DNA of 33,619 nt from a virus. A program made the translations under genes and the position numbers. The notes under the pieces were generated by a model that was not told where the DNA came from, searched no databases, and was given only the letters and a program-made list of their open reading frames with translations. The DNA is taken from IMG/VR virus record IMGVR_UViG_3300034061_004968, positions 1 through 33,619 of that record, one strand, 5' to 3'. Position 1 is the stretch's first letter, and the number at the start of each line of letters is the position of its first letter. Below, in pieces: positions 1 through 30,112 of this stretch.

Positions 1-261
1 ATCAAGTAAATCATAAAGATATATTCCTTCCTCTACAATTTCATTATAAACTACTTTTTTTCCCTGTAAAAGATCATCAACTTTAATTGCTGATGCTTTA
101 ATCTTTTCTTTACCGAACGAATGATTATTGGAACATTTTATTTCAGATCCATCATCAAATATTATCCAATGATAAAAAGGTTTGTATATTTTTTGAATTC
201 CAGAAAAAGATTTAAATCCAGATGGAGTTTTTACTGTAATATTTTTATTAAGTTTAAACAT
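1..261 (-). CDS. C-terminal intein fragment (IntC) of split large terminase, partial
   Basis: This is an 87-codon open frame, uninterrupted from an ATG at 261 to the window edge. It encodes the larger part of a HINT (intein splicing) domain. Visible signals are a beta-rich start, a W-I-I-F-D-D-G-S-E-I-K strand (residues 32-42), and an intein block B with S44-N-N-H47, where H47 would be the block-B histidine. The N-terminal Cys block is missing because it sits on the terminase N-fragment (855-941). The pattern closely resembles, from memory, the C-fragment of the atypical split intein AceL-TerL. By that comparison about 16 residues, including the final His-Asn and the Cys+1 of the nuclease half, lie outside the window. 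The ATG overlaps the endonuclease stop by 8 nt (ATGTTTAA), suggesting translational coupling. No strong ribosome site is visible. Inferred role: associates with the 29-residue IntN and splices the two terminase halves in trans. Confidence 0.85.
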   Translation of the reverse strand, partial: MFKLNKNITVKTPSGFKSFSGIQKIYKPFYHWIIFDDGSEIKCSNNHSFGKEKIKASAIKVDDLLQGKKVVYNEIVEEGIYLYDLLD

Positions 262-823
262 TTGCCCAACACTCTTTTAAAATAATTCTCTTTATTCCCT
301 GTGGCGTTAAATTATAGTTTTCTGCATATTTCTTACAAAATGCTTGAAGATATGATAATTCCTTTCCATTTTTCATAATCATACCAACATTTTGCAAGTC
401 TGGTTTTTCATTATATAGTTTTCTTAATTCTTTTATTTGTTCATCATTAATTTTTCTAGTAAAAACTTTACCTTTTCTAGATTCAATCATTTTTTCTATA
501 GTTTCTTCAGAAAAGCAATTTTTTATTCCTTTGTTCCAAGGAATATTACCTTTTTTTACCCCACCAACTCCCTTCCTTTCATAATTATCAAATCCTTCGC
601 CGCCTGTAGATTTATTCCATCCATTTTTAAAAGTATCAAATTTTTCTATGTAAAAAATTTCTGCTTCTTTTGCTTTTTCTGAAATATCTATCTGCTCACT
701 TATTTCAAAAATATGTGGAGGTTTATTTCTCATATGCTCTCTTTTTCTAGCATCTAAATTTTGAGTTTGTCCAACATATTTGACATTTCCATTTAAGTCT
801 TTAAGAAAGTAAATATAATACAT
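254..823 (-). CDS. GIY-YIG homing endonuclease, free-standing, in the intein break
   Basis: A 189-aa GIY-YIG family endonuclease. The N-terminus carries Y3-I-Y and Y16-V-G (the two namesake motifs), R26 and H30 in A-R-K-R-E-H, a likely catalytic Glu at E55 and an Asn at N70 followed by S-T-G-G-E-G. These match the order of key residues in I-TevI-type enzymes. Residues about 92-120 (G-N-I-P-W-N-K-G-I ... S-R-K-G-K) look like a NUMOD3-type DNA-binding motif. The last 60 residues are helical and could form a helix-turn-helix. The gene lies exactly between the two halves of a split terminase intein, in a third reading frame, 28 nt after the N-half stop and overlapping the C-half start. A perfect late promoter box lies 9 nt before its ATG, with no Shine-Dalgarno sequence. 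Expected role: cutting intein-free terminase alleles to spread the element. Its target site is not visible here. Confidence 0.9.
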   Translation of the reverse strand: MYYIYFLKDLNGNVKYVGQTQNLDARKREHMRNKPPHIFEISEQIDISEKAKEAEIFYIEKFDTFKNGWNKSTGGEGFDNYERKGVGGVKKGNIPWNKGIKNCFSEETIEKMIESRKGKVFTRKINDEQIKELRKLYNEKPDLQNVGMIMKNGKELSYLQAFCKKYAENYNLTPQGIKRIILKECWANV

Positions 824-832
824 TTTTTTAAT

Positions 833-840
833 TATTTATA
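833..840 (-). promoter_or_regulatory. T4-type late promoter box (TATAAATA)
   Basis: An exact TATAAATA on the minus strand, in the 28-nt gap between the terminase N-half stop and the endonuclease ATG. In T4, transcription starts about 5-7 nt past this box, which would leave a leader of only a few nucleotides before the ATG at 823. It would drive the endonuclease and the downstream IntC-terminase nuclease gene independently of the N-half. Confidence 0.75.
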
Positions 841-851
841 ATCCAAAAAAC

Positions 852-1733
852 TTACATTCGTTCATATAAATCTTCCATAGAAATTTTTTGAGGAATATCA
901 TCTGCATCTAAAATTTCTATGGTTGTATCTCCACTTAAACACTCAAACTCAACTTTAAACTGTTGATCTGAAGTGTTTGCAATAGTTTGTTTTTTCCACT
1001 CTTCGTCTCTTCCAGGAACTTCACTCCAATGAACGTCTGTAAAAACATATTCATTCTTACCCTTTTCGGCATCATGCCACATTCGGTAGAAGTGATTCAT
1101 ACCGTGAGGCGTAGAAACTATAATAACTTTTGTTTGCTTACCTGAAGTAATAGTGGGATAAACAGATGCAAAGAATGAATCTGCAATATGATTTGGAACG
1201 AATGCAAATTCGTCCAAGAATAGAATGTTAAAAGACATTCCTCGAACAGCAGATGCAGAAGTGGATGCCGCTAAAATCTTTGAACCATTCTCAAGTTCTA
1301 GAGAACCTTTGTTCCAAGATATGATACCTTGTTGCATCCACTTTGGTAGATTCTCATAAGCAGTCTGAAGACGGTCTAGAAGTTCTCTAGCAGTTGCTGC
1401 TTTGTTTGCAAGAATACCAATATTTACGTTATCGTTGAAAACTGCATAATGCAATAAAAAAGACACCACAGTTGTAGACTTACCAGTCTGTCGTGGCATC
1501 TTACATATATTAAATCTATGATTATGAAAGTTATTGATTAACTTTTCTTGGAAATGATATGGTTTAAAATTTTGTAGTCCATGATCAAGGGTTACAATTT
1601 TTACATAATTATTTGCAAAATAAACTGGATCATCTTTACACTTAACAAACTCAAGAATTTGTTCTTGAGTAAATTCAATAGGAGTATTTGCTTTTTTTAG
1701 TAACGGATTGCCAAGATAGACATCATTTGACAT
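852..1733 (-). CDS. gp17: Large terminase (gp17-like) ATPase half fused to split-intein N-fragment
   Basis: The first 264 residues are the ATPase half of a T4-like packaging motor (T4 gp17 is 610 aa). Walker A is M79-P-R-Q-T-G-K85-S; Walker B is I-L-F-L-D174-E175; the coupling motif is V-S-T-P-H-G at 206-211. The sequence then leaves the family at V-E-F-E | C265 and continues with C-L-S-G-D-T-T-I-E-I and S-M-E-D-L-Y-E-R-M before a TAA. This is an intein block A with its nucleophilic Cys1. The break falls near the ATPase/nuclease boundary, so the nuclease half must come from a separate gene beyond position 1. A GAGG Shine-Dalgarno precedes the ATG, and the gene starts 17 nt after the upstream stop. 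The truncation is not decay: both motifs and the intein fragment are intact. Role: powers DNA packaging into proheads with gp16, once spliced. Confidence 0.92.
   Translation of the reverse strand: MSNDVYLGNPLLKKANTPIEFTQEQILEFVKCKDDPVYFANNYVKIVTLDHGLQNFKPYHFQEKLINNFHNHRFNICKMPRQTGKSTTVVSFLLHYAVFNDNVNIGILANKAATARELLDRLQTAYENLPKWMQQGIISWNKGSLELENGSKILAASTSASAVRGMSFNILFLDEFAFVPNHIADSFFASVYPTITSGKQTKVIIVSTPHGMNHFYRMWHDAEKGKNEYVFTDVHWSEVPGRDEEWKKQTIANTSDQQFKVEFECLSGDTTIEILDADDIPQKISMEDLYERM
855..941 (-). other. Intein N-fragment (IntN), 29 residues
   Basis: Codons for C265 to M293 of the terminase N-half. They begin with the splicing nucleophile Cys and the C-L-S-G-D-T block-A pattern, and end with the amphipathic I-S-M-E-D-L-Y-E-R-M. 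Most natural split inteins break after block B, giving N-fragments near 100 residues. This one breaks right after block A, as in the AceL-TerL type (about 25 residues). An acidic D-A-D-D stretch sits in the middle. Confidence 0.85.
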
Positions 1734-1750
1734 AATAAATTAACCTCAAT

Positions 1751-3658
1751 TTACCATTTAACTTTATTGGACCAGAAGGCGGCACTCATTTTTCCCTTTG
1801 CAATATTTTTTGCGTGTCTTGTTTTAAATTTGCGACGACGACTTGCATACTCTTCAGATTCTCCTTTTTTCTTTGGGGAACCTTTAACACCAAGTTGTCC
1901 GAAACGAATTAATTTTTCTTCCCCACCTTCACAAGCCTTTACAACGTGAGATTTGCCAGTTTCGCCAGAACCGTGTGCTTCAGCCTTTGGATTATTGCAC
2001 TTCATTTCAGACTTTTTTGCTTCTGATATTTCAACCTCTTCCCCCATAGTTTTTATATATGCTCTACTTGGTCCTGGTTTTGCCGAACTTCCTCCCTGAG
2101 GACCACACATCTGAATGAGCGGTTGTCCTGGATGAATCTCTGAAATTGAATGATAAATTACAACAGATCCAGGATAAACTTTTTGGAGTTCATCATTAAT
2201 TTCTTTTCTTGATGGAGTTTTAACCTGGGGGAAAAACATCTTCATAGAATAATATTTTCCTCTCCAAGAAAGAGTTACTGCAATAACATTTCCAGTTTGT
2301 GCTTGAAGTCTTGTTGCCTCACTTACTTGAGACTTAAATCCTCTAATTGGTTCTGGTTTAATAATATCGACAACTTCAGCAAAAGTATTTCCGTCAGCAT
2401 CTTCAATAGTTACATCTTCTGCTTTTACGCAAGAACCTTTATCAAACTCTTTAGTTCCTTTTTTTCTTTTATAACCTGGCCAACATTTTTCATCTAATAT
2501 TTCCCTTGTAATTTTATCAACCAAAGTTTCTTCAAATTTGGGTAAAGTAACACCAACAACTTTCTTTGCTTTTTGTGGTAATTGTGCTTGTTGTGCGGTT
2601 GTCATATTAGCAATTTTTTTTGCCGCGGATGACATCTTAGTTTTTTTATGTTTTTCTGGATCTATCTCATACCCAAAAGATTCTTCCATTTCTCCGCTTG
2701 CAATATAATCTGCTGCAGTATCGATATAATCTGCTGCTTTAGTAATTTTTGACTGAACCCATGCTTCTAAATCTCCCTCACCTTTACCAACTTTTGATTT
2801 GATCCTTTTTACTGCATCTTCAATGGTTTTGAGTTCTGATCTTGCCATTGAGTACTCTTCATCCTTTACAGAAACCTTATCCCATGCCTTTTCGCCATAA
2901 GAACATTCAGATCTTGTTTCTCTTTTGTCACATAAAGGACAGTATCTTTCTTCTTCGTGCATAGTTTCCTCCGATTTAGTTCCCCAGTTTGCAGCACCAA
3001 CATTACGACACTTTACAAGTGCTCCAGAAGCATATGCACTTGGCCAAACAGAATATCTAGATTTTACCTTATGGTAACAAGCGTCTTTTTTGCCACTACC
3101 TTTACCCGGTTTGTCTTTTGCTTCTTGTACGTCCATTTCCTCTTTCATTTTCTTTTTAGGTGAATCCGTAGAAACATATGTTGGTTTTGCAGCTCCAGTT
3201 TTTTCTTGTTGTCCAGGATCTGCTGCTTTTTTTCTTCTTGCTGCTGAACGTCTTTCTGCGGAAGTCATGCTTGCTCTTTTTTCAGACGAAACGCATTTTG
3301 GAACCCCTTCGCCTGGTTCGTCACTTGCACAAGTTCCTCCAGTTAACACATTAACCCAGCCAGGTTTTTTATCTGTTGATTCCGAATCTTGAAACCATTT
3401 ATGAAGTTTATTTTCTTTTACATCTTTAAATTTTCTATGATGCTTTTTGGCATCTGCTTCCATTTTTTTCAAACGAGTATAATAGTCTGGAATCTCATCT
3501 AAGTGTTGAAGAGCAATATTACGAGCAAGTTCATGATCTTGAGTGTGTTCATGCTCAATAGGTTCCCCCATATCAAGTTGCTTTTGTATAAAAGAAACGT
3601 CAAGACGATGCTTCTTTGCGATTTGCTCAACGGTTTTATGCGACTTGATTTTGGGCAT
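1751..3658 (-). CDS. Mosaic lysine-rich protein of unknown function between gp16 and gp17
   Basis: A 635-aa protein that I recognise only as cyanophage-type modules. Residues 1-70 (start M-P-K-I-K-S-H-K-T-V-E-Q-I-A-K-K-H) look like the DUF5661 type. About 105-165 is a small basic block with T-G-G-T-C-A-S-D-E-P-G and R-R-S-A-A-R-R-K-K-A. About 195-225 has K-S-R-Y-S-V-W-P-S-A-Y-A-S-G, a string common in phage hypotheticals. A C-P-L-C motif with a third nearby Cys follows. Near 395 comes E-K-C-W-P-G-Y-K. About 445-515 is a beta-rich domain (A-V-T-L-S-W-R-G-K-Y-Y). The last 80 residues include L-I-R-F-G-Q-L-G-V-K-G and a basic end with F-W-S-N-K-V-K-W. There is no membrane segment or signal peptide. 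It has its own late promoter box. Position suggests a packaging-related or packaged DNA-binding protein, which is inference only. Names of the DUFs are from memory. Confidence 0.8.
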   Translation of the reverse strand: MPKIKSHKTVEQIAKKHRLDVSFIQKQLDMGEPIEHEHTQDHELARNIALQHLDEIPDYYTRLKKMEADAKKHHRKFKDVKENKLHKWFQDSESTDKKPGWVNVLTGGTCASDEPGEGVPKCVSSEKRASMTSAERRSAARRKKAADPGQQEKTGAAKPTYVSTDSPKKKMKEEMDVQEAKDKPGKGSGKKDACYHKVKSRYSVWPSAYASGALVKCRNVGAANWGTKSEETMHEEERYCPLCDKRETRSECSYGEKAWDKVSVKDEEYSMARSELKTIEDAVKRIKSKVGKGEGDLEAWVQSKITKAADYIDTAADYIASGEMEESFGYEIDPEKHKKTKMSSAAKKIANMTTAQQAQLPQKAKKVVGVTLPKFEETLVDKITREILDEKCWPGYKRKKGTKEFDKGSCVKAEDVTIEDADGNTFAEVVDIIKPEPIRGFKSQVSEATRLQAQTGNVIAVTLSWRGKYYSMKMFFPQVKTPSRKEINDELQKVYPGSVVIYHSISEIHPGQPLIQMCGPQGGSSAKPGPSRAYIKTMGEEVEISEAKKSEMKCNNPKAEAHGSGETGKSHVVKACEGGEEKLIRFGQLGVKGSPKKKGESEEYASRRRKFKTRHAKNIAKGKMSAAFWSNKVKW

Positions 3659-17623: not shown

Positions 17624-20600
17624 TTAAACACTTGTGGAATACCCAACGTATCTCAGTGGATTGAGTCTTTGAATCATAGGAGAAGTTAAAATACCAGAAA
17701 TTCCAGTATTATATGAAACAAAATTGAGTGGTTTCTTCCTCACTGGAGTGTTTATTTTACCCCAACTAAATTCTCCATAAAATCCACTATATCCAGTTCC
17801 AGATAATCCATTATAACTCAGAACACTGACAACAACTCTAGAAACATTTGTTACTCCAATTCCAGGAACACTTGTTTGTGCTATAGAAACTGAAGCAACT
17901 TTATAGATATTATCCAAGCAAGTTGTTCCTACCCCAACAACAGATAAAGATGAATCTAAAGATGTAATACCAAAACCAATGTTTGAATTAAATACTGTAA
18001 AGTAATAATCAGTTTTTATTCCACTTATGCCCGTTGTTGCAATTCCAACATTAATGTTTGGGTTTCTTAGATAAGAATCAGTAGGAATAAACAAATCAAA
18101 AACTATTGCAGTGGATGCAATACCAACTGAAGTTGTAGAAATTCCAACTATTGTTCCAAAATCACCTTCATAGGTAACCTCTTCAATTTTTTCCTGTTTT
18201 AATGATGGATATTCGATGAGAACTTGCGGTGGATTATTAGTAGTGTAACCAGATCCGGGGTTAGTAATAGTAAAGGAAGTTACAATGCCAGAAGTAATTG
18301 ATGCTGTTGCTGTTGCTGTAGTTACAACACCTACTGTTTTTGCAATTACTACTGACGGCGCAGTTGTAAATCCTAATCCGCCATTATTAAGAGAAAGTGA
18401 TGATATTGTTCCTGCCGCGGACACAATGGCAGTAGCTGATGCCCCAACTAGATTGTCTTGTGATGTTATAGTTATTTTTGTTTTAAATGGAATAGTTGAA
18501 TTTTCTCTCAAGTCATCAAAAAATACTTTAACACTTTGTACAAATATCTCAGTAGATGCTATTCCAACAGTTCTAATAATATTTGTTGTTGGATGTATAA
18601 ATGGTTCGTATAATTCTCTACTCTTACCAACTTCTTGTCCGCTGATAATTTTATCTTCAGTTTGTCTACACCAAATTAGAGGTCTTGATAAAGTTTCATC
18701 GAGAGTTAAACCAACACCTGAATATGGGTTAGTTTCAATAGAATCTGATGAAATAACTTGCGTGACAAGTCTTTCTTCTTCTTTTAAGAAGAATCTATCA
18801 TCGTTCAGTCTTATATCGTCTCCAATTTTTAAAGATTCCAAAATATCAACAAAAACAACATCAACTTGTTCGGTTCCTTTATAAAATAATATTTTGCAAG
18901 TATCGCCCTCTTTGGGGGCCTCGGGGAATGTAATAGTACTTCCCCCATTAAATAAATATCCATCACCCGGAACTTGCAAAATATCATTAACAAATATCAA
19001 AAGAACAGATTGAATATCAATATTTGATCCTGCTCTTGATCTAATGGTTGTTTGCACTCCATTAATTTTTATTGGGAAAGTTCTTCTTTTTCCGTTGAAT
19101 AAATTTTCTATTTTATCAATAACTTGGAAATCTCCAACAGACCAGGATGAGAACAAGTCAGAGAATACTTCGTCAATTGTTAGTTCAAATTTTCTAAAAG
19201 GTTTTGAAGAATCTGTTGGAATTCCAATTAATCCTCCAGTTTGAACTGTTAGAACATCCGATGTTTTATATGCAAATCCAGTATTTTTTATTTCAAAATC
19301 AATTACACTAGATCCTTGTCCAACTACAATGTTAACAGTTGCTCCAGTTCCTATTCCTGACGTTCCGGAAGAATAAACTAAAGGAATGTTGTAATAATTT
19401 TCTGGACTATCAATTATTACTATTGGTGGATTGGAAGATGTATATCCAGATCCGGGATTGGTTATAATTACATCTTTAGAAATACGTCCAGAAGAAACAG
19501 TGGTAAACCCAACGAACTGATAATTCAATGTTCCAGAAACACTAGACGTTTTGACTCCAACGTTTACAATTCCAGTTGTTGGCGAATCTAAGGTTATCAA
19601 AACAGAAGTTCCTGCTTCTATTGCTTGGGAAGATGTACTTCCAGATCCAATAAGAACATATGTACTTCCTGAACCTACGATTGTAACATCTTGAAAAGCA
19701 GAACCTATTCCAAGTTTATTTAAACTTGAATGTTGTAACTTAGCAAAAACTCCATTTTGGTTATCAATCGGTATAATAGTAGATCCTGCTGCAATTGCTA
19801 CGGAAGTTTGAGTAATAATTTCATATTTTGATGCTCCTCTATATCCAGATCCCGTCGATCCTATACTAATTAATGAAATAGTCCCTGCAACAGAGACTAT
19901 TGACGTTCCTCCCGCAGAGATTAGCGGTTGATATCCAAATCCTTGAGTGGATGCAACAGAAACAATTACCCCTCCTCTAGGAATACTTGACGTGTTGATA
20001 TCATACGAAGTAGATGATATATTACCAATAAATGATAAAGTTGTAATGCCAGAATTTTCTGACATTTTATAATTTCCTGGAATGGTAATAGTGCCAAGTC
20101 TTTGGGGTTCTTGGAATATATTGTTAATTAATAGTATTATCGATCCTGTTGATACTCCAATAACATCAGATTTATTTGATTTTAGAATAAATTCGGTATT
20201 AATTCCAGTAAATCTCTCAGATAACCCATCAAAAATGTAGTTTCTACTGTAAGGTTCATATGATTCATTTTCTACTCCCGATCTCAAGAAAACTCTTCCG
20301 CTGAAAGTAGAATGTGTTGTTATTCCTGTATAATCTCTATCGTCGGGTCTATTTGTCATTGTTCCTATTGGGGAATTTCCATAAGGAGCTTCAACAAAGT
20401 GTATTGTATTGTCTATAATATTATAGTTGCCAGTTACTTTTGTTACTGTAGACCCTATTGAATGATTTTCTGGCGTTGTTCCCATCCAACCACGATCAAC
20501 TAAAAATACATTTGTACTTCCAAAACCAACAACATTAACTTTTACTATTTCATTATTAATTTTTAATAAATCTCCGCCATAAATTGAACTTATACCCGAT

Positions 20601-23600
20601 AAAGTGAGATTGATTTCATTGAAATTGGAAGTTTTTGCCAGTGATACTGATGTTAAAGTTGATACAATTGGTGATTGTATATGATTATCAATTGCAATTA
20701 AACATTTAGAATTTTGTTTTTTGGCGGTAAGAAAATGAGTAGTTCCTATACCAACAGAAGTAATAGTTAAGGTTTGTGGAATAGATTTTAGTGCATCTTC
20801 CACTGAAGATGCAAATCTAATGTTTAAATCATTTAGTTTGACAGCATAAACTGAGGATGGTAACTTATCTGTTACTCCTATTCCAGAAATTGTTGTTGTT
20901 GCAATTCCTATAGGACTTCCATTGCCGGAGTTATAAATTAGTTCTTCCCCTGTTACATAAAAATGGTTAGGAATTTTGACTAAATTATCTGCAACATTTA
21001 CAATTAAGTTATTTGAAGCATCAAAAACTCTTTGGAATATTGGATTTTGTTTGTTTTTGAGATCAAAAGACTTTTTAACTTTGTTTAATGTACCTTGATA
21101 TTCGGAATATGATGAATCCAAACTCGCATTTGTAAATCCATAAAATTCTAAAGAATTTCCAGAATCAACGATTCTCATGGAGTGTTGATATACCTTAACA
21201 TTTACCGAAATATTTGGATTTGGCGTAAAATAAAGATTTGTTCCGGTTGAACCAACGCCAGCACCAATAGTCCCCAAACCAGAAATAGTTTCTAAAGAAC
21301 CAAATTCAACTGCATATGCATTAGTTTCATCATCAATAACAACTATTTCTGAAGATTGATAAGAATTATTTGCAGTATCTTCAACCATCACAAGATAGTA
21401 TGCACTCGAATAATCTTGAGAATAATTTGATATAACTGTTTGACTTGGTGTTGGTGATGATGATATTGCAACATAATTTGATCTAATATCACCAGTATTA
21501 AATGTTATGGATCCAGTTGTAATGCCTGATCCAGAAGTATTTGCCAATGAAACTCTGAGAGTATTTACAGTGTATGTAATACCTAACCCAACATTAGGAA
21601 TAAAATCGAGATTTATATTGGAACCGGAAATGTATGCAGTATAAGTTCCAATTCCATCTCCAATGTATTTAACTCTATTTAAATTAGATAATTTTCCATA
21701 TTCTAATATATGGACATTTGTTCCATCATTAAGCAAAGTTATTTCATCAAATTGGAAATATTTTCCATCACTAGGTTCAAATTGGACAAGTATTTTTGAT
21801 GCTCTATGAGTTGATGCAATACTAACAATTGTCGTTTGTGAGGTTGTTCCAGAGGGAACTATTGCAGTTGAAGATTTGAGTTCGACTAAATTTCCTAAAG
21901 AGGTATTTCCAACACCCAAAGAATTTTTATATATTCCATAAGACATCACACTAACATCATAATCGTTAATAAAGTAAGATGATGGGAAAAACTTTAAAGT
22001 TCCTTCAGATCCAAAAATTGAAAAATCAAAAGAACCGAGGTCACCACCAGTTTCAACTTTAGAATATTCTGATATATAACTTTCCAATCCATCTTGTAAA
22101 ATTGAAACCAGAGAAATTTGCCTTAGTCCGGTAAATCTTTTATCTCTAACAAAAGTTATATATTTTTTAAATCTAAAATCTGCCAGCCTAAACGTATCTG
22201 CATTTGCATAATTATTAATTCCTGGTAAATTTGAAAATTGATCACTTATATCATCAATCATCAAAACTTTATTTCCGATTGACTGCAACTCATCTTGTAA
22301 AGATACGGAGTTAAAGATTATTTCTTTTGAATAATAGATTGAGTCAATTTCTATCGTTTTTTCTCTAGCAAGATCAAAATCATTTACACAGTTTAAATCA
22401 ATTTCCCTTACCAAATCAGAAACTGCAGAGAAATCTCCATCATTTTGAGATGTTGCTATTCCAACAAACTGTGAATCTATTGACTCTATTGTGAGATCTC
22501 CAAATTTTTTAAATCCTGTTGTATGATTTAAATTACCTATAGATTCATTCCAAGTTTCATAATCAACCTTTGATTTAATAGAATATGAAAAGTTTTGATA
22601 ATAATTATTATCCGAAGTTACTTGGAACTGATTATTTAAAAATCCAGTTTCTCTATTCCATCCCTTCCTAACAATAGACGAAGATCCAACTGTATAAATT
22701 GCGTTCACATCTTCAACCTCTACTATAGAACCTTTTGCTTTTGAAGTTTCTCCTATAATCTGAGAATTTATTTGGAATGAATTTGTGGTAGATATTTTTA
22801 ACTGCTCAGTATATTCATTCCAATTCAATACCGTTCCCATAAAAGAATCACTTTTCACCTTTTCGCCAACAATAAATCTTCCCTTTTCCAATAACGTATT
22901 GAATATTGGGAAATATTTTTCCGGTACTACTATTCCGGCAGAATTTTCAGAATCAAAAGATCCAGGAGACTCAGATCCAGTTAAATAATCAGACAAATTA
23001 TATACTATCGTTGCACCAGAAGCGCCGTACTGAGGATTGACTGAAGTTAAAGTGAATAATTTATAATTATAATTTTTAGAATTATATCCTTTAGAAGTTG
23101 TCGCGGAACCAACACTAGTACTCTCAATTAAAACTTTGTCGCCAACATTAAATGGAAATACTTGACCAAAACTGTAATTTACGCCCAATTGTACTGTAAC
23201 ATTTTTAGTTACACTATTAAATGTGATATTACTTATTGGAACCCCATTAGAATTATTTGTTGGAATAATTATTGGAGTTACACTGTTTATTCCTTCGGTA
23301 TTTCTAACAATACTTACGGTTTTTGTTTTAATATCATATGATAAATCAACATCACTAACAATCTTATTCGTATATCCATCAATTACAACTAAAGTGGGGG
23401 ATATCGTGTAGTTTACTCCGACTGAAGAAACTCCTACAGACTTAAATATGGATAATGGATTAATCTTTAATACTTGAGGAAGTTTTGCTGATGGTCTTAA
23501 TGTTATATCTGATGGATACTCAAATCCAATATCCTCAATTTCCACATTGTTTATATTGCCAATAGAAATTGTTATTGGATCTAAAATTGCATTTTTACCA

Positions 23601-26600
23601 TTCTTCGAAAAAACAGTCGTTACACCCGGAGAAGTTTCGTAATATGATCCAGATGATTTCAATTCTATTCTTTGAATTGTTCCGGAAACATTTCTAGAAT
23701 TAGTGTAATATTGAAAATCGCCATCAGCATTTGTATAAGATAAACTTTCCGGATAACCTAAAATGTTGAATTTAAAGGTTGTTTGTCCAACTCCACTAAT
23801 AGTGTAATTTCCTGTATAAAAACTTCTTGTCAAAGAAAGTTTATTATTATCCAAAATATTTTCATTGTCGTTTATAATTTCTTTTTTGACTGCATAATTA
23901 TCAGTTAAATTAATTGGAATCAGTGCGTAATATAAATCAAAATTAATATTTGAAGTAGAAAGTCTAACATAAGAAGTGGAATCAACTCCCACTTTTCCAA
24001 TTCTTACTACATCAAACATCGAAGAATCTTCTGCTTTGACAAATTCTTCAGTTAAATTTGAATTGGTATACAATTTAAAATCAAATGCTGGATATAAAAC
24101 AGATCCCTTAGCAAAAGATAATGATTTATCAGACAAATCAAAGTTTACTATTTGATTTGGAATTATTGAAATAATTGGATTGACTAAAGAAATTGATCCA
24201 TCAAAGGTTGAGGTAAAATCAATTGTCTCTGGAATATCTTTGATTGCGTTGTAGTAAGTAGAAGATAATTTTATTTTATCTTTGTTAAATTTAACGACAT
24301 AATAAATTTCATCATTGGTCAACCCACCACCTACTCCACTTATAGAATTATAAATTACCTTCTGTCCGGTAAAATAACCATGATTAGCAACTAATATTGT
24401 ATTATTTGCAATGTCAATATCACCAGAAACAAAATTCTTTGGATTTACAATTAATCGTCTATTGTTATCATTATACTTTATTACTACAGTAGTTGTGATA
24501 CCGGGCAAAGATTCAAAATATACTATGTCATTATTTTTTAATCCATGTGTTGTTGCGGTTGATACTGTGACAGTGTTTCTATTAAATTCTCCAATCAAAA
24601 CATTATCATAGTCTGTTTTAAAACTATGATTTAAACCAGATCCAACACTAGTGAAATAAAGTGTCGAAAATACTACATTGCTATTAATTCCAACGAAAGA
24701 TCCGGTTGATCCCAAACCAACTTTATTTGTGGAAATGCCTATCAGATCATCGGATACTTTTGCAACATAAACATACTGATTATCCACTAATTGGAAAGAA
24801 GTTATGCCATCATTAGAAACAGATATTGGCGAATCGCCATTGCTAGAGTAAATTAATTTCTCTCCGGTGTTTAGCGAATGTGAAGGTAAGTATATTGTTT
24901 TTGTTGGGATAAAAATACTCGTAACTCCAGATCCTGGATTTGAGAAGTTTAAAGTATGCCCAATTCCAACTCCAGAAGAGGATCCAATTGCAAGAGATTC
25001 TGCTGGACTAAAGTAAAATTCTTTGTTTAGGTTGAAAACTACATTAGTGGTTCCCGGAGAATCAAAAGTAAATTTTCTAGTTTGTTCATATAAAACAGTG
25101 GAAGCAGTGTGAGATGATCCAACTGTTGAATCATATGCCCTTAATACTTTAATCCTCGAAGATGGTGTGTCAACAGAAAGAACTTTTACCTTCTCATTTT
25201 CGATGAGATATACATCATTTTCTCTTATACTTGGGTAATTTAAAGAACCGTTTACATTAAAATATGTAATAATTCCGGTAGCAGTTGTTGTTCCAACAGT
25301 ATTCAGAAGAGAAAGTGTGTCTGTTCTAACACCAACTTGATAAAATCTATCAAAAAGTTTTGATAAAGTGTTTATTCCAGAGATTGAAATTATGTCATTG
25401 TTAATAAGACTGTGTGGAGTAGAGCAGAAACCAATATATTTTCCTACATTATCAATGGGATAAAATTCAACATTGGGAGAAAAAGTAGAAGCAAAACTTA
25501 CTGTTTTTACCTCTTTTCCTTTTACATAAGATACTTGAGCATATGCATTGGATCCATTTGTCTTCAAATTATTGAATACTATATTGTCTCCAACCTTATA
25601 ATCATTTCCACCAGTAGTAATACCAATATCATTTATTCCGCCAGTTAAAATTGATTTTATTCTTGATGACGATTCTTTTATTTTTGTTGGATTTAATACA
25701 AATTCATATTCTGAATTTTTGCTAGTAAACTTATATGGAGTAGTATTGCGAATTAAATTTTCTGTAACAAAATCAAAACTATCTTGGGTAACTCTTGTAT
25801 AATTAAACTGATTAGGTGATGATTTAAAAGTGTTTCCAATCAAATATGGAAAAACTGGTTTCTTGTAATTTTTAAATACCCCAGTGGTTTCAGTTGATCC
25901 ATTATTAATAGTTGCAAAATATGCATAAATTCCATTTGGAAATTCTGGAGTTACGCAAAATCTTCCATTGTGCTCGTCCAAATCTCCAGAATTATTAAAC
26001 TGATAATCCTCTACAAAAAATCCTTCCGGATAAATTTTTTGTCCTAATTGTGAAACTGGATCTGGTCTTTCAGAAGAAATTTGCGACACATATCCAGAAA
26101 TCATTTCTCTCACATTTCCTCCAGATGGATTTGAATATCCATATGGACCATAGATCGGATTTCCATCATAAGCCCAACCAATAATTGGGGAATGAACATT
26201 AGATACTACTTCTCTATTTCCCGACAATGTGAGGTCTGGTACAAAAGTTTGGTTTCCTTTAACATAATCAATACCAAAAACACTTCTCCTTAATTTTCTT
26301 GGAGCATACAAATGACAATATTGTGCCCCAATCATTGTAAATGGAGAAATGTCTATGATACCATCATCGTCAGAAATACTGTTTGTAATTAAGTGTTTTT
26401 CTACTTTATTGATTGTCCAAGATTTTACTTTACAATACGACTTAAAATTTCTTCCCGAAGAAACAACTTCCAACAAAGTTCCTGCAGTACTAAATCCAAC
26501 TCCTCCATTTACAATTTTAACATCTACTATTTTTCCCCCACCAATTACTGGAGTTAATATTGCTGCAGTCCCTATTCCTAAGGTATTGATTGTTGGAGCA

Positions 26601-29600
26601 GACGTATAATTGCTACCGCCATTTAGAACCAATACTTGTTTTATTTTTCCATTATTTACAATAGCAGAAAGTTGTGCCTCAGATCCTATACCTAAAGTAA
26701 CTTTTGGTTGTCTTTCATAATTTATAATTTCCGAAGATCCATATCCGACTCCAAAATTACTTACAAATACATTGGTAATAGATCCTCTAAAAACTGGTTG
26801 CAAAATTGCATTAAAGTTTTGATTTGTTAATGTAGAAACACCTATTCTTCCAGAAACTGAAACAACAATTTCTGGATAATTAAATGTATGTAAGGATGAA
26901 CCGATTGAAGTTAAATTAACATATTGATTTGTTTTAAAATAAAAATCCCTATTAGTGGTAGCAATTCCTACTTGAGATAGTTTGAATTGATCCTCATTTA
27001 CTTTAGTTACAAAATATGATGTTCCACTAGATAATCCGCCAACCACTGTTCCAGTTGGATTATAAACTATTACTTCTCCGGTATTGTATCCGTGATTTGG
27101 TATATCGATACTATTATATGCAGTATTGATTCCTGATGAGGTACATACTATTTTTTTATTTTTGTAACCAAAACCCCTGTTCAGGACACTAACACTAGAG
27201 ATCTTCCTCTTTGGAGAGAAAGATTCAAACAAATGAACTCCAACTCCATATGAAGTTAGATTTATTGTGTTAATTCCAGAGACTGCATCATCCAATGTTT
27301 TATGCAATTTAACATTAAATGCATCTTGTACATTGACATAATATTGAGCATTTGTGGTAATTCCACCAACACTAGTTTGACCTTCAGTTAAATATACTAC
27401 TCTCTCATAGTCTCTAAATTTATGATAAGATGAAAAACCTAAGGTGTCATTGGTTAAATTAACAAGACCCGCAGATTCTATTGAGTTGAAAGAAACTTGA
27501 TGTTTGAAAGTTGTTAAATTTGGTTTTGCATAAGCGCCTAATCCATTTCCACCTGTTATTGTTATAATTGGTTCATCTAAGTAGTCAAATCCACCATCAA
27601 CAACGTCTATTCTTTCTAAAGACCCTTCAACATGAACTAAAGCAGTTGCATTATATCCATTTGTATCTTCTATTGAAATTGAAGGGGGATTAATTATATC
27701 ATAATCTTCTCCGCCATCTAAAACTTCAATATTTTGAATTCCACCATAATAAATCTTGTCTTCAGATTTATAACTGTAAGCTTCTACTCCATTTACCAAT
27801 AACCCAACGGGTCCAATAGGAGTATCTAAATTATCATTAATACTCTTTGGTTTAGGAGTTGTAATATTTTTTATATAAGATTGAGGCAAAAGATTAAATA
27901 CTTCAAATTTAACTTTCTTAAAGGTATTATTGACAACTGATCCAGAAACACTTACAAATTTATTATTATAGAGATCTGATCTACTATTTGCAAGTTTTAT
28001 TTTTGTTTCATCTATTTTCTTGACATAGTATGTCTTAGAAAGAATATTCAGAGAATTCTCTACTTCAAAACTATTTTTTACATATATAACTGAATCACCA
28101 GTATATAATCCATGTAAATTATTTGGATTTCCAGAACTCAAATCTAAAGTTTCTCCGTTAAAAGTTCCAGAAAAAACAATATCGGTTGATTTAATATCAA
28201 TATTTTCTCCAAGATAATCCGGAATGCAGTTTGATGCTACATAAATGTTATTTTCATCCTTCAAGTAAACATTTTGAACGTTTGGAATGTATTCATTTAA
28301 TGCTGTAAAATTGGTAAAACTTGGTTTTTTAATATTTCTTTCTATAGAATATTTTAAATTAATATTATCAATTTTTGGTCCTTCTACACTAATAGAATTT
28401 GCATTGTTTATTTTTGCGACTTTATAACTTGATTTCACATTACTTGACGAAATTAAAGTAATAGAATCTCCCAAATTTATATTATGGGCATCATATGTAA
28501 TAAGTTCATATGAAAATAAATTTAAAGTCGTATTTGACGAATTTGGACCATTAACTTCTTTCAGATTATACTTATTAGAAATATTAAATATCCAATTATT
28601 TGCTAACTTCCCTGATGCCTCATATCCCAAAGTTACTGTTTTTATTGGATCACCTTTAGACATTAAATAATTTAAATCCGGAAAAGAAATATCAGAAAGA
28701 ACGCCGGTTATTCTTACTTTTATTGTAGTATTTCCAGTATTTGCATATGCATAAACATCATTTAATTTTAAATCAGTTCCGGATGGAATAATTAAATTAC
28801 AAGGAGATGTTAAATTAAACTGTGTTAGATTTTTTGAAGTATAATCAAAAGTATAATCTACGCCATTTACATTTAATAATAATTTTCCATTAGGAGGAAA
28901 TCCAATTGTTGAATCGACATCTAATAAAGTACTGGATAAAGAACTTTGGGTAGTTAATTTTGTTGATGGATGAATGGAGAAACTCCCATATACCGATCCA
29001 TCTACAAGTAAATCTTTATTATAATCACTATCTAGACTTAAAACATAATATGTTTTATTTTGCCTGACAATTTTTTCTATTTTTGTAATAGTACCATAAG
29101 ATTTAGGGAAAAAATTATCTACACTGGCATCCTGATACAGTGTTTTATTTTCAAGATCCATTGGATCTCCTGAAATAGATTCAACTACTAAATCTCTTGT
29201 TATTCTATATTGAGCATCTGATGGTCTTAAAAGAAAATCTCTTGGTTTTATTACATCAACCGTTTCTCCAAAAAGAGATTTAAACAATATCTTATATGAA
29301 TCATCAGTTCCTTTTGAACTATAAAAATCTCTTGCTTGCTTTATGAAGGTTTTTTCATTCAGTCCTTCAGTAAATTCTCTGTTTTCAAATCCAGGAATTA
29401 ATTGTCTTTTTATTTTTGTAAGAAATTCCTTTAAGAACAAAGAACTTAAATTTTCAACTTTGGCATTGCTGGAATGCGTAGAAATACCTGAGGTGGAAAA
29501 CACCAACTGATCTGGATTATTTTCTGATCTATAAGAAGTGATTCCACTAAATCCTCTAGTACAATCAACAAAAGATGTTGTAGTTTTATTCTTATACAAT

Positions 29601-30112
29601 ATAATTTCAGAGTCTATTTTGATTATTCCATTAGACTCTGGGAATCCATACGTGGATGATACATCAATAGTACTATCTACAAAATCAACATTGCTAGATA
29701 AAAAAGTTGAAGATGGTGTTTGTATTGCAAACTCCAAAACATCAGTAGTTGATGCTGTGGTTGTTAAAAATACTGACGTTCCATCTGTAGCAAAATAATC
29801 TACATTTCGATTTAACTTTACGCCATTTTTATATACAATAAGATTCTCAATAGAATAACCACCACTAACAATAAAATATGATTGTGGTGCTTGTGGTTTA
29901 ACAGTAACAGTTCTACTGAATAAAGATTCTGCTAGATTATCAATTTTCACATATTGATCTATATTCTGAAGAATATCTAAAGTTCCACTTTTTCCTTCTA
30001 ATGAATTATAGTATTCTTTTAAAAATTCACTTACGAGAGGATATTCTTCCTGCACAAAATCTGGAAGCTGATCTTGTACAATTGAACTGATTTTAACTCT
30101 TGTATTTGTCAT
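17624..30112 (-). CDS. gp7: Giant gp7-like baseplate wedge protein, 4162 aa
   Basis: It starts 1 nt after gp6. The first ~380 residues align in pattern with the C-terminal third of T4 gp7. E-Y-P-L-V-S-E-F-L-K-E-Y-Y (23-35) has a T4 equivalent. A-R-D-F-Y-S-S-K-G-T-D-D-S-Y-K-I-L-F-K (about 257-280) matches T4's S-Y-D-F-Y-S-T-K-G-I-E-A-S-Y-K-F-L-F-K. L-E-N-K-T-L-Y matches the following L-V-G-Q-T-I-Y. T4 gp7 is 1032 aa; here about 3,700 residues of repeated beta modules follow: GG-x-GY repeats, HGY-x-TG repeats and 'E-I ... RG' modules. A YHYH-type domain lies at about 1265-1425 (G-W-A-Y-D-G-N-P-I-Y-G-P-Y-G, N-G-R-F-C-V-T-P-E-F-P-N-G). The end contains G-E-F-S-W-G-K-I. One open frame, no stops. 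gp7 is the wedge scaffold in T4, and the order gp6-gp7-gp8 agrees. Confidence 0.85.
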   Translation of the reverse strand: MTNTRVKISSIVQDQLPDFVQEEYPLVSEFLKEYYNSLEGKSGTLDILQNIDQYVKIDNLAESLFSRTVTVKPQAPQSYFIVSGGYSIENLIVYKNGVKLNRNVDYFATDGTSVFLTTTASTTDVLEFAIQTPSSTFLSSNVDFVDSTIDVSSTYGFPESNGIIKIDSEIILYKNKTTTSFVDCTRGFSGITSYRSENNPDQLVFSTSGISTHSSNAKVENLSSLFLKEFLTKIKRQLIPGFENREFTEGLNEKTFIKQARDFYSSKGTDDSYKILFKSLFGETVDVIKPRDFLLRPSDAQYRITRDLVVESISGDPMDLENKTLYQDASVDNFFPKSYGTITKIEKIVRQNKTYYVLSLDSDYNKDLLVDGSVYGSFSIHPSTKLTTQSSLSSTLLDVDSTIGFPPNGKLLLNVNGVDYTFDYTSKNLTQFNLTSPCNLIIPSGTDLKLNDVYAYANTGNTTIKVRITGVLSDISFPDLNYLMSKGDPIKTVTLGYEASGKLANNWIFNISNKYNLKEVNGPNSSNTTLNLFSYELITYDAHNINLGDSITLISSSNVKSSYKVAKINNANSISVEGPKIDNINLKYSIERNIKKPSFTNFTALNEYIPNVQNVYLKDENNIYVASNCIPDYLGENIDIKSTDIVFSGTFNGETLDLSSGNPNNLHGLYTGDSVIYVKNSFEVENSLNILSKTYYVKKIDETKIKLANSRSDLYNNKFVSVSGSVVNNTFKKVKFEVFNLLPQSYIKNITTPKPKSINDNLDTPIGPVGLLVNGVEAYSYKSEDKIYYGGIQNIEVLDGGEDYDIINPPSISIEDTNGYNATALVHVEGSLERIDVVDGGFDYLDEPIITITGGNGLGAYAKPNLTTFKHQVSFNSIESAGLVNLTNDTLGFSSYHKFRDYERVVYLTEGQTSVGGITTNAQYYVNVQDAFNVKLHKTLDDAVSGINTINLTSYGVGVHLFESFSPKRKISSVSVLNRGFGYKNKKIVCTSSGINTAYNSIDIPNHGYNTGEVIVYNPTGTVVGGLSSGTSYFVTKVNEDQFKLSQVGIATTNRDFYFKTNQYVNLTSIGSSLHTFNYPEIVVSVSGRIGVSTLTNQNFNAILQPVFRGSITNVFVSNFGVGYGSSEIINYERQPKVTLGIGSEAQLSAIVNNGKIKQVLVLNGGSNYTSAPTINTLGIGTAAILTPVIGGGKIVDVKIVNGGVGFSTAGTLLEVVSSGRNFKSYCKVKSWTINKVEKHLITNSISDDDGIIDISPFTMIGAQYCHLYAPRKLRRSVFGIDYVKGNQTFVPDLTLSGNREVVSNVHSPIIGWAYDGNPIYGPYGYSNPSGGNVREMISGYVSQISSERPDPVSQLGQKIYPEGFFVEDYQFNNSGDLDEHNGRFCVTPEFPNGIYAYFATINNGSTETTGVFKNYKKPVFPYLIGNTFKSSPNQFNYTRVTQDSFDFVTENLIRNTTPYKFTSKNSEYEFVLNPTKIKESSSRIKSILTGGINDIGITTGGNDYKVGDNIVFNNLKTNGSNAYAQVSYVKGKEVKTVSFASTFSPNVEFYPIDNVGKYIGFCSTPHSLINNDIISISGINTLSKLFDRFYQVGVRTDTLSLLNTVGTTTATGIITYFNVNGSLNYPSIRENDVYLIENEKVKVLSVDTPSSRIKVLRAYDSTVGSSHTASTVLYEQTRKFTFDSPGTTNVVFNLNKEFYFSPAESLAIGSSSGVGIGHTLNFSNPGSGVTSIFIPTKTIYLPSHSLNTGEKLIYSSNGDSPISVSNDGITSFQLVDNQYVYVAKVSDDLIGISTNKVGLGSTGSFVGINSNVVFSTLYFTSVGSGLNHSFKTDYDNVLIGEFNRNTVTVSTATTHGLKNNDIVYFESLPGITTTVVIKYNDNNRRLIVNPKNFVSGDIDIANNTILVANHGYFTGQKVIYNSISGVGGGLTNDEIYYVVKFNKDKIKLSSTYYNAIKDIPETIDFTSTFDGSISLVNPIISIIPNQIVNFDLSDKSLSFAKGSVLYPAFDFKLYTNSNLTEEFVKAEDSSMFDVVRIGKVGVDSTSYVRLSTSNINFDLYYALIPINLTDNYAVKKEIINDNENILDNNKLSLTRSFYTGNYTISGVGQTTFKFNILGYPESLSYTNADGDFQYYTNSRNVSGTIQRIELKSSGSYYETSPGVTTVFSKNGKNAILDPITISIGNINNVEIEDIGFEYPSDITLRPSAKLPQVLKINPLSIFKSVGVSSVGVNYTISPTLVVIDGYTNKIVSDVDLSYDIKTKTVSIVRNTEGINSVTPIIIPTNNSNGVPISNITFNSVTKNVTVQLGVNYSFGQVFPFNVGDKVLIESTSVGSATTSKGYNSKNYNYKLFTLTSVNPQYGASGATIVYNLSDYLTGSESPGSFDSENSAGIVVPEKYFPIFNTLLEKGRFIVGEKVKSDSFMGTVLNWNEYTEQLKISTTNSFQINSQIIGETSKAKGSIVEVEDVNAIYTVGSSSIVRKGWNRETGFLNNQFQVTSDNNYYQNFSYSIKSKVDYETWNESIGNLNHTTGFKKFGDLTIESIDSQFVGIATSQNDGDFSAVSDLVREIDLNCVNDFDLAREKTIEIDSIYYSKEIIFNSVSLQDELQSIGNKVLMIDDISDQFSNLPGINNYANADTFRLADFRFKKYITFVRDKRFTGLRQISLVSILQDGLESYISEYSKVETGGDLGSFDFSIFGSEGTLKFFPSSYFINDYDVSVMSYGIYKNSLGVGNTSLGNLVELKSSTAIVPSGTTSQTTIVSIASTHRASKILVQFEPSDGKYFQFDEITLLNDGTNVHILEYGKLSNLNRVKYIGDGIGTYTAYISGSNINLDFIPNVGLGITYTVNTLRVSLANTSGSGITTGSITFNTGDIRSNYVAISSSPTPSQTVISNYSQDYSSAYYLVMVEDTANNSYQSSEIVVIDDETNAYAVEFGSLETISGLGTIGAGVGSTGTNLYFTPNPNISVNVKVYQHSMRIVDSGNSLEFYGFTNASLDSSYSEYQGTLNKVKKSFDLKNKQNPIFQRVFDASNNLIVNVADNLVKIPNHFYVTGEELIYNSGNGSPIGIATTTISGIGVTDKLPSSVYAVKLNDLNIRFASSVEDALKSIPQTLTITSVGIGTTHFLTAKKQNSKCLIAIDNHIQSPIVSTLTSVSLAKTSNFNEINLTLSGISSIYGGDLLKINNEIVKVNVVGFGSTNVFLVDRGWMGTTPENHSIGSTVTKVTGNYNIIDNTIHFVEAPYGNSPIGTMTNRPDDRDYTGITTHSTFSGRVFLRSGVENESYEPYSRNYIFDGLSERFTGINTEFILKSNKSDVIGVSTGSIILLINNIFQEPQRLGTITIPGNYKMSENSGITTLSFIGNISSTSYDINTSSIPRGGVIVSVASTQGFGYQPLISAGGTSIVSVAGTISLISIGSTGSGYRGASKYEIITQTSVAIAAGSTIIPIDNQNGVFAKLQHSSLNKLGIGSAFQDVTIVGSGSTYVLIGSGSTSSQAIEAGTSVLITLDSPTTGIVNVGVKTSSVSGTLNYQFVGFTTVSSGRISKDVIITNPGSGYTSSNPPIVIIDSPENYYNIPLVYSSGTSGIGTGATVNIVVGQGSSVIDFEIKNTGFAYKTSDVLTVQTGGLIGIPTDSSKPFRKFELTIDEVFSDLFSSWSVGDFQVIDKIENLFNGKRRTFPIKINGVQTTIRSRAGSNIDIQSVLLIFVNDILQVPGDGYLFNGGSTITFPEAPKEGDTCKILFYKGTEQVDVVFVDILESLKIGDDIRLNDDRFFLKEEERLVTQVISSDSIETNPYSGVGLTLDETLSRPLIWCRQTEDKIISGQEVGKSRELYEPFIHPTTNIIRTVGIASTEIFVQSVKVFFDDLRENSTIPFKTKITITSQDNLVGASATAIVSAAGTISSLSLNNGGLGFTTAPSVVIAKTVGVVTTATATASITSGIVTSFTITNPGSGYTTNNPPQVLIEYPSLKQEKIEEVTYEGDFGTIVGISTTSVGIASTAIVFDLFIPTDSYLRNPNINVGIATTGISGIKTDYYFTVFNSNIGFGITSLDSSLSVVGVGTTCLDNIYKVASVSIAQTSVPGIGVTNVSRVVVSVLSYNGLSGTGYSGFYGEFSWGKINTPVRKKPLNFVSYNTGISGILTSPMIQRLNPLRYVGYSTSV
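25845..26325 (-). other. YHYH-type domain within the giant gp7-like protein
   Basis: Codes residues about 1265-1425. G1312-W-A-Y-D-G-N-P-I-Y-G-P-Y-G-Y, then G-D-L-D-E-H-N-G-R-F-C-V-T-P-E-F-P-N-G-I-Y-A-Y-F, then F-P-Y-L-I-G match the order of motifs in the YHYH family. The namesake Y-H-Y-H string is not evident; the nearest is Y1265-C-H-L-Y. The domain function is unknown to me. Confidence 0.75.

What the first reader, a model, noticed from the sequence alone, without database searches (positions are those of the whole stretch)
1..1733. Large terminase encoded in two pieces joined by an atypically split intein
The gp17-like ORF stops after a 29-residue intein block A starting at Cys265. The rest of a HINT domain, with its block-B histidine, resumes in a new ORF at 261. 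The break comes right after block A, not at the usual endonuclease site. That is the rare AceL-TerL type known from metagenomic terminases; here the whole locus arrangement is visible. N-half, endonuclease and C-half are in three different frames, so no simple read-through can restore one protein. An essential packaging motor would depend on trans-splicing.
Basis: partly seen in the sequence, partly recalled or inferred. Interest (0 to 1): 0.92.

Follow-up and report, generated by a model that had tools for sequence, protein, structure and literature searches.

The report
Packaging-motor gene split by trans-splicing intein
This marine phage encodes its DNA-packaging motor in two pieces, separated by a gene-drive-like endonuclease, that a known type of split intein should stitch together after translation; the class was already known, but its relatives show how such splits spread, persist after the endonuclease is lost, and can double up.

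Summary
On the minus strand, terL (gp17) stops after 29 intein residues from Cys265; a GIY-YIG endonuclease ORF follows, then a large C-intein cut off by the contig end. Both intein halves match the two chains of a solved consensus atypical split intein (PDB 6dsl). In relatives the missing part reads as predicted: 16 more residues ending SHN, then CEFLGS and the TerL nuclease domain. A 188-kb relative has no second terL. The locus is thus a native, endonuclease-bearing member of the published AceL/GOS/Cat-TerL class in a 'fractured gene' arrangement. It is not rare in T4-like marine phage contigs. What adds interest lies outside the window. (1) The cassette is horizontally mobile and carries a T4-type late promoter. 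(2) The endonuclease was lost about eight times while the split stayed; AceL-TerL itself looks like such a relic, and one relative looks re-fused. (3) Some terL genes are split twice, in three pieces with two endonucleases. (4) In 39 Campylobacter phage records the halves are unlinked (22-27 kb apart, opposite strands, where measured). Splicing of this particular pair is inferred, not shown.

The parts
942..1733 (-). TerL (gp17) N-extein, residues 1-264, ATPase domain with Walker A and B
   Evidence: Pfam Terminase_6N 1.3e-24; 90% identical to Synechococcus phage S-SCSM1 TerL
855..941 (-). IntN, 29 residues from Cys1 (block A); stop codon at 852-854
   Evidence: PDB 6dsl chain A CatN, E=2.7e-10; coordinates
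833..840 (-). TATAAATA, T4-type late-promoter-like element in the gap between IntN stop and endonuclease start
   Evidence: present in 66 of 67 scored gaps of relatives, shuffled mean 2.0; NATAAATA lies upstream of seven ORFs in the window
254..823 (-). GIY-YIG homing endonuclease gene, 189 aa, with a weak NUMOD3 match; its stop overlaps the IntC start by 8 nt
   Evidence: Pfam GIY-YIG 6.1e-7, NUMOD3 0.03; overlap conserved in relatives
1..261 (-). IntC, first 87 of about 103 residues, block-B His at residue 47; cut by the contig end before HN, Cys+1 and the TerL nuclease half
   Evidence: PDB 6dsl chain B CatC, E=1.6e-45; completed in L002-L004

Best explanation
The locus is a fractured terL gene. 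A mobile cassette (short IntN, late-promoter-like element, GIY-YIG homing endonuclease, long IntC) sits in a conserved T4-like TerL site, FE|CEFLGS. The ATPase half ends in a 29-residue IntN; the nuclease half starts with a roughly 103-residue IntC. The two are translated separately, the intein halves bind and fold into one HINT domain, and class-1 protein trans-splicing (Cys1, block-B His, terminal HN, Cys+1) releases full-length TerL. The endonuclease most likely cuts terL alleles that lack the cassette, so that repair copies it in. Shown here: anatomy, homology, conservation, empty site, mobility pattern. Inferred: splicing of this pair, endonuclease activity, use of the promoter.
For: Both intein halves match the solved Cat pair. 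All loci read keep the block-B His, and all that reach the C-terminus keep SHN|CEFL. Relatives supply the nuclease domain; cultured cyanophages supply the empty site FE|CEFLGS. Purifying selection: dN/dS 0.08 N-extein, 0.10 IntC, 0.20 endonuclease. One terL only in long relatives. Cassette distances decoupled from extein distances: HEG-IntC r=0.90, HEG-N-extein r=0.39. In Campylobacter Fletchervirus homologous split halves are unlinked on opposite strands, which excludes joining in cis at the level of one transcript there.
Against: No splicing or cleavage assay exists for this pair. The window's own IntC is truncated, so its HN and Cys+1 are inferred from relatives. An AlphaFold model of the joined intein was of low confidence. 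In some relatives the endonuclease is absent, so it is not needed for the split state.
Confidence: 0.92

Rival explanations
1. The halves act as a two-subunit terminase without splicing, as with the endonuclease-split 'genes-in-pieces' ribonucleotide reductase.
For: Such a case is known for a phage ribonucleotide reductase (cited in PMC10448857); the break lies near the border between ATPase and nuclease domains.
Against: Catalytic intein residues are kept in every locus read and IntC is under strong purifying selection; neither is expected if the intein parts were idle.
Confidence: 0.04
2. The pieces are joined at the RNA level or by recoding (group I intron, frameshift, bypass), not by an intein.
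For: Phage terL genes with introns are known (ICP1, PMC10448857).
Against: No Rfam match up to E=1 in window 1-3000 and none in five related loci; three different frames; intein catalytic residues conserved; unlinked halves in Fletchervirus.
Confidence: 0.02
3. The terL copy is decayed, or the contig end is an assembly artefact.
For: The contig ends inside the feature.
Against: The same order recurs in many independent metagenome contigs with all three ORFs under purifying selection.
Confidence: 0.02

Closest known systems
AceL-TerL, GOS-TerL and the consensus Cat-TerL atypical split inteins (PDB 6dsl; review PMC11766414)
   Same: Short IntN (25-37 residues) and long IntC (104-115) in TerL, Cys+1; the window's halves match CatN and CatC.
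   Different: The window keeps a GIY-YIG endonuclease and a late-promoter-like element between the halves. L364, which has the published AceL fragment lengths, has none.
'Fractured genes' (Dassa et al. 2009, NAR gkp095; known from memory, paper not held)
   Same: Gene broken by a split intein with a free-standing endonuclease gene between the halves.
   Different: By memory that set concerned DNA synthesis and repair enzymes with canonical split points and often Vsr-like endonucleases; here the gene is terL, the split is right after block A and the endonuclease is GIY-YIG.
Split terL of cultured phages HY03, phiR1-RT, G2494, VP-1, K469, AsFcp_4 and Campylobacter Fletchervirus
   Same: TerL in two ORFs with a short IntN and a homologous IntC.
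   Different: HY03, phiR1-RT, G2494 and Fletchervirus are split at Walker B (DE|CAF); VP-1 and K469 use the window's site but fuse IntN to the GIY-YIG domain; AsFcp_4 fuses the endonuclease to IntC; in Fletchervirus the halves are unlinked.

Membership tests
Atypical TerL split intein (AceL/GOS/Cat type) | Short IntN ending after block A, homologous to CatN | tested here: met
   29 residues, 6dsl chain A E=2.7e-10
Atypical TerL split intein (AceL/GOS/Cat type) | Long IntC with block-B His, homologous to CatC | tested here: met
   6dsl chain B E=1.6e-45
Atypical TerL split intein (AceL/GOS/Cat type) | Terminal HN and Cys+1, then TerL nuclease half | tested here: inconclusive
   Off the end of this contig; met in every relative that reaches it
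Atypical TerL split intein (AceL/GOS/Cat type) | Trans-splicing activity | not testable with these tools
   Needs co-expression; activity is published for AceL, GOS and Cat (PMC11766414)
Fractured gene arrangement | Free-standing endonuclease ORF between the two halves | tested here: met
   GIY-YIG ORF 823-254, own start and stop
Fractured gene arrangement | Endonuclease cuts the empty allele | not testable with these tools
   Only the pattern of mobility was tested
T4-type large terminase (gp17) | Terminase_6N ATPase domain | tested here: met
   E=1.3e-24
T4-type large terminase (gp17) | Terminase_6C nuclease domain in the window | tested here: not met
   No match in the window, which ends before it; present in relatives
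Group I intron | Intron RNA structure | tested here: not met
   No Rfam match up to E=1 in window 1-3000

The most novel reading that the evidence does not exclude
T4-like terL genes are a hotspot where split inteins spread with an endonuclease and then outlive it: endonuclease loss leaves an adjacent split pair (the well-known AceL-TerL would be such a relic), which can re-fuse into a contiguous intein. In some viruses two different split inteins in one terL mean that the motor is assembled from three polypeptides by two separate trans-splicing reactions.
Probability: 0.6. Interest if true: 0.72.

Novelty: new member of a known kind. Interest (0 to 1): 0.52.

Why it matters
It gives the native, endonuclease-bearing genomic form of a split-intein class that is used as a protein-chemistry tool and known mainly as excised parts. 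The relatives form a series (empty site, split with endonuclease, remnant, split without, contiguous) that makes the origin and fate of split inteins testable. Cultured coliphages with split terL (HY03, G2494) make it possible to ask directly whether an essential motor depends on protein trans-splicing.

Tried and rejected
AlphaFold of the L074 IntN+IntC region read through its single TGA: pLDDT 48, not used. A first full-length protein alignment misplaced the C-halves and was dropped. GTDB genome contigs: no relative of IntC found, so no prophage form. The apparent match of cyanophage S-SM2 TerL into the IntN region is a spurious extension; its terL is intact. RNA intron: rejected. Second terL copy: rejected in long relatives. 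L303 in the pattern scan is a chance match without TerL context.

Full report
CHECK OF THE OBSERVATION. The window is the whole viral record (33,619 bp, linear). The minus strand carries three ORFs in three frames: 1733-852, 823-254 and 261-1. The first is the ATPase half of a T4-type large terminase (Terminase_6N 1.3e-24), the second a GIY-YIG protein (6.1e-7). The first ends 29 residues after Cys265. IntN hits PDB 6dsl chain A (CatN, 2.7e-10) and IntC hits chain B (CatC, 1.6e-45). The coordinates and residues given in the finding are correct.

WHAT IS MISSING FROM THE WINDOW. The contig ends at IntC residue 87. The closest relatives (L002-L004, IntC 99% identical) add exactly 16 residues, VGEDNLYYSNGIVSHN, then CEFLGSVDTLI, and a Terminase_6C domain (L002, 1.3e-15). 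Cultured cyanophages S-SM2 and S-CAM9 have uninterrupted FE|CEFLGSVDTLI. This fixes the insertion point after residue 264, before the Cys that becomes Cys+1.

HOW COMMON. One IntC query found 127 encoding stretches in IMG/VR. The 80 loci read all carry IntC as a separate reading frame; wherever the N-half is present, it stops after IntN. All keep the block-B His, and the 80 that reach the C-terminus keep SHN|CEFL. An empty-site scan also hit its limit. So the arrangement is frequent in these viruses, not rare.

FUNCTIONAL CONSTRAINT. Median pairwise dN/dS is 0.08 for the N-extein, 0.10 for IntC and 0.20 for the endonuclease. Only one Terminase_6N and one Terminase_6C match occur in the 188-kb relative L018 and in other long relatives. 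A decayed or redundant terL is therefore unlikely.

MOBILITY. Over 26 dereplicated loci, endonuclease and IntC distances correlate at r=0.90, endonuclease and IntN at 0.76, but endonuclease and N-extein only at 0.39. L018 and L036 share N-exteins that are 100% identical after rounding but carry different cassettes (endonuclease 69%, IntN 52%); L005 and L024 have 81% N-exteins and near-identical cassettes (98-100%). For the window, L071 has 97% TerN with 85% endonuclease, while L002 has 87-92% TerN with 97% endonuclease. The cassette moves independently of its gene. Homing by the GIY-YIG protein is the natural mechanism but was not tested.

OWN PROMOTER. The short gap between IntN stop and endonuclease start (27-40 nt) holds TATAAATA in 66 of 67 gaps scored, against a mean of 2.0 in shuffles; only 20 of those gaps are distinct, 19 of them with the element. 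In the window NATAAATA lies 9-41 nt upstream of seven ORF starts and occurs only once on the other strand, so it looks like this virus's T4-type late promoter. Endonuclease-less loci of the window's type lack it. It could drive the endonuclease and IntC half late in infection; that use is inferred.

ENDONUCLEASE LOSS AND RE-FUSION. Among 160 complete loci (some contigs were fetched twice), 139 have an endonuclease-sized gap, 3 a remnant, 14 none, and 4 are contiguous. After dereplication to 65 types (52/1/8/4) the tree needs 8 changes for the endonuclease-less state and 2 for the contiguous state. L074 and L077 have a TGA and six further bases before IntC in the same frame, so one stop codon separates the halves; L262 (same contig as L059) has an identical intein and carries the endonuclease. 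In the AceL-like clade, L278 has the endonuclease, L357 and L364 do not, and L359 is one open frame. The 3' end of the L278 endonuclease gene (GTTGGACAAATG) is still readable in L357 and in the L359 linker, and in altered form in L364. L364 has the fragment lengths published for AceL-TerL (25 and 104 aa; PMC11766414), so that model intein is probably a relic of endonuclease loss; its identity was not checked against an accession. The direction of change at L359 rests on the scar and on its place in the tree (support 100/73 at the nearest fork).

BEYOND THE SITE. Walker A (GK|S, after residue 86) is a second intein site. It holds contiguous LAGLIDADG inteins in L002, L003 and others, or a second atypical split intein, found in up to 24 loci, often with a Vsr-like endonuclease. 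L029/L119, L040/L122 and L054 carry both split inteins: five ORFs, TerN-IntNa / Vsr-like / IntCa-TerMid-IntNb / GIY-YIG / IntCb-TerC. L120 shows the same order as far as its contig goes, and in L029 the Vsr-like gene is truncated. The two IntC types are about 33-35% identical in these loci. Such a terminase would need two trans-splicing events.

CULTURED RELATIVES. HY03, phiR1-RT and G2494 (Straboviridae) are split at Walker B, DE|CAF, with an endonuclease between the halves or fused to IntN. VP-1, K469 and 1.255.O use the window's site with IntN fused to a GIY-YIG domain; AsFcp_4 has the endonuclease fused to IntC. In Campylobacter Fletchervirus the N-half with IntN and the C-half with IntC are on opposite strands: CP39 at 69 and 93.5 kb, CP81 at 125 and 103 kb, NCTC12673 at 46 and 73 kb; 39 records carry the N-half. 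A 2012 paper described terL of a related Campylobacter phage as interrupted by an intein and an intron enclosing an endonuclease (PMC3322345).

NOVELTY. The intein class, its activity and its structure are published, and the fractured arrangement is a known concept, so the window is a new member of a known kind. The library used here holds few of the primary intein papers. Whether the double-split terL, the endonuclease-loss series or the unlinked Campylobacter halves have been reported elsewhere could not be settled.

Noticed in passing
L054 985-5070; also L029/L119, L040/L122, L120: terL split twice by two different atypical split inteins (Walker A and FE|CEF sites), with a Vsr-like and a GIY-YIG endonuclease: three TerL pieces in five ORFs.
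   Followed up: partly
L115 1411-2127 and L099 3492-4820 (Campylobacter phage CP39); 39 Fletchervirus records: TerL halves with IntN and IntC at Walker B lie 22-27 kb apart on opposite strands in those measured.
   Followed up: partly
L108 600-4907 (Campylobacter phage CP21): terL appears to hold three inteins, two contiguous and one split, read from the translation.
   Followed up: no
L359, L364, L357, L278 (AceL-like clade): Endonuclease-bearing, endonuclease-less and contiguous forms of closely related inteins, with a readable 3' scar of the endonuclease gene.
   Followed up: partly
L002 26-1909, L003, L007, L033, L037, L062, L066: Contiguous LAGLIDADG intein in Walker A (QTGK|ALSLDTP...FIPTHN|STT) without Cys1; it resembles class 3 inteins by eye.
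   Followed up: no
L126: Third insertion inside TerMid in a locus that already has the Walker-A split intein.
   Followed up: no
window 17624-30112, minus strand: A single 4162-aa ORF between gp6/gp25-like and gp8-like positions; function not examined.
   Followed up: no
window, minus strand: 32459, 17609, 10341, 7400, 5138, 3679, 833: NATAAATA elements 9-41 nt upstream of seven ORF starts: likely T4-type late promoters of this virus.
   Followed up: partly
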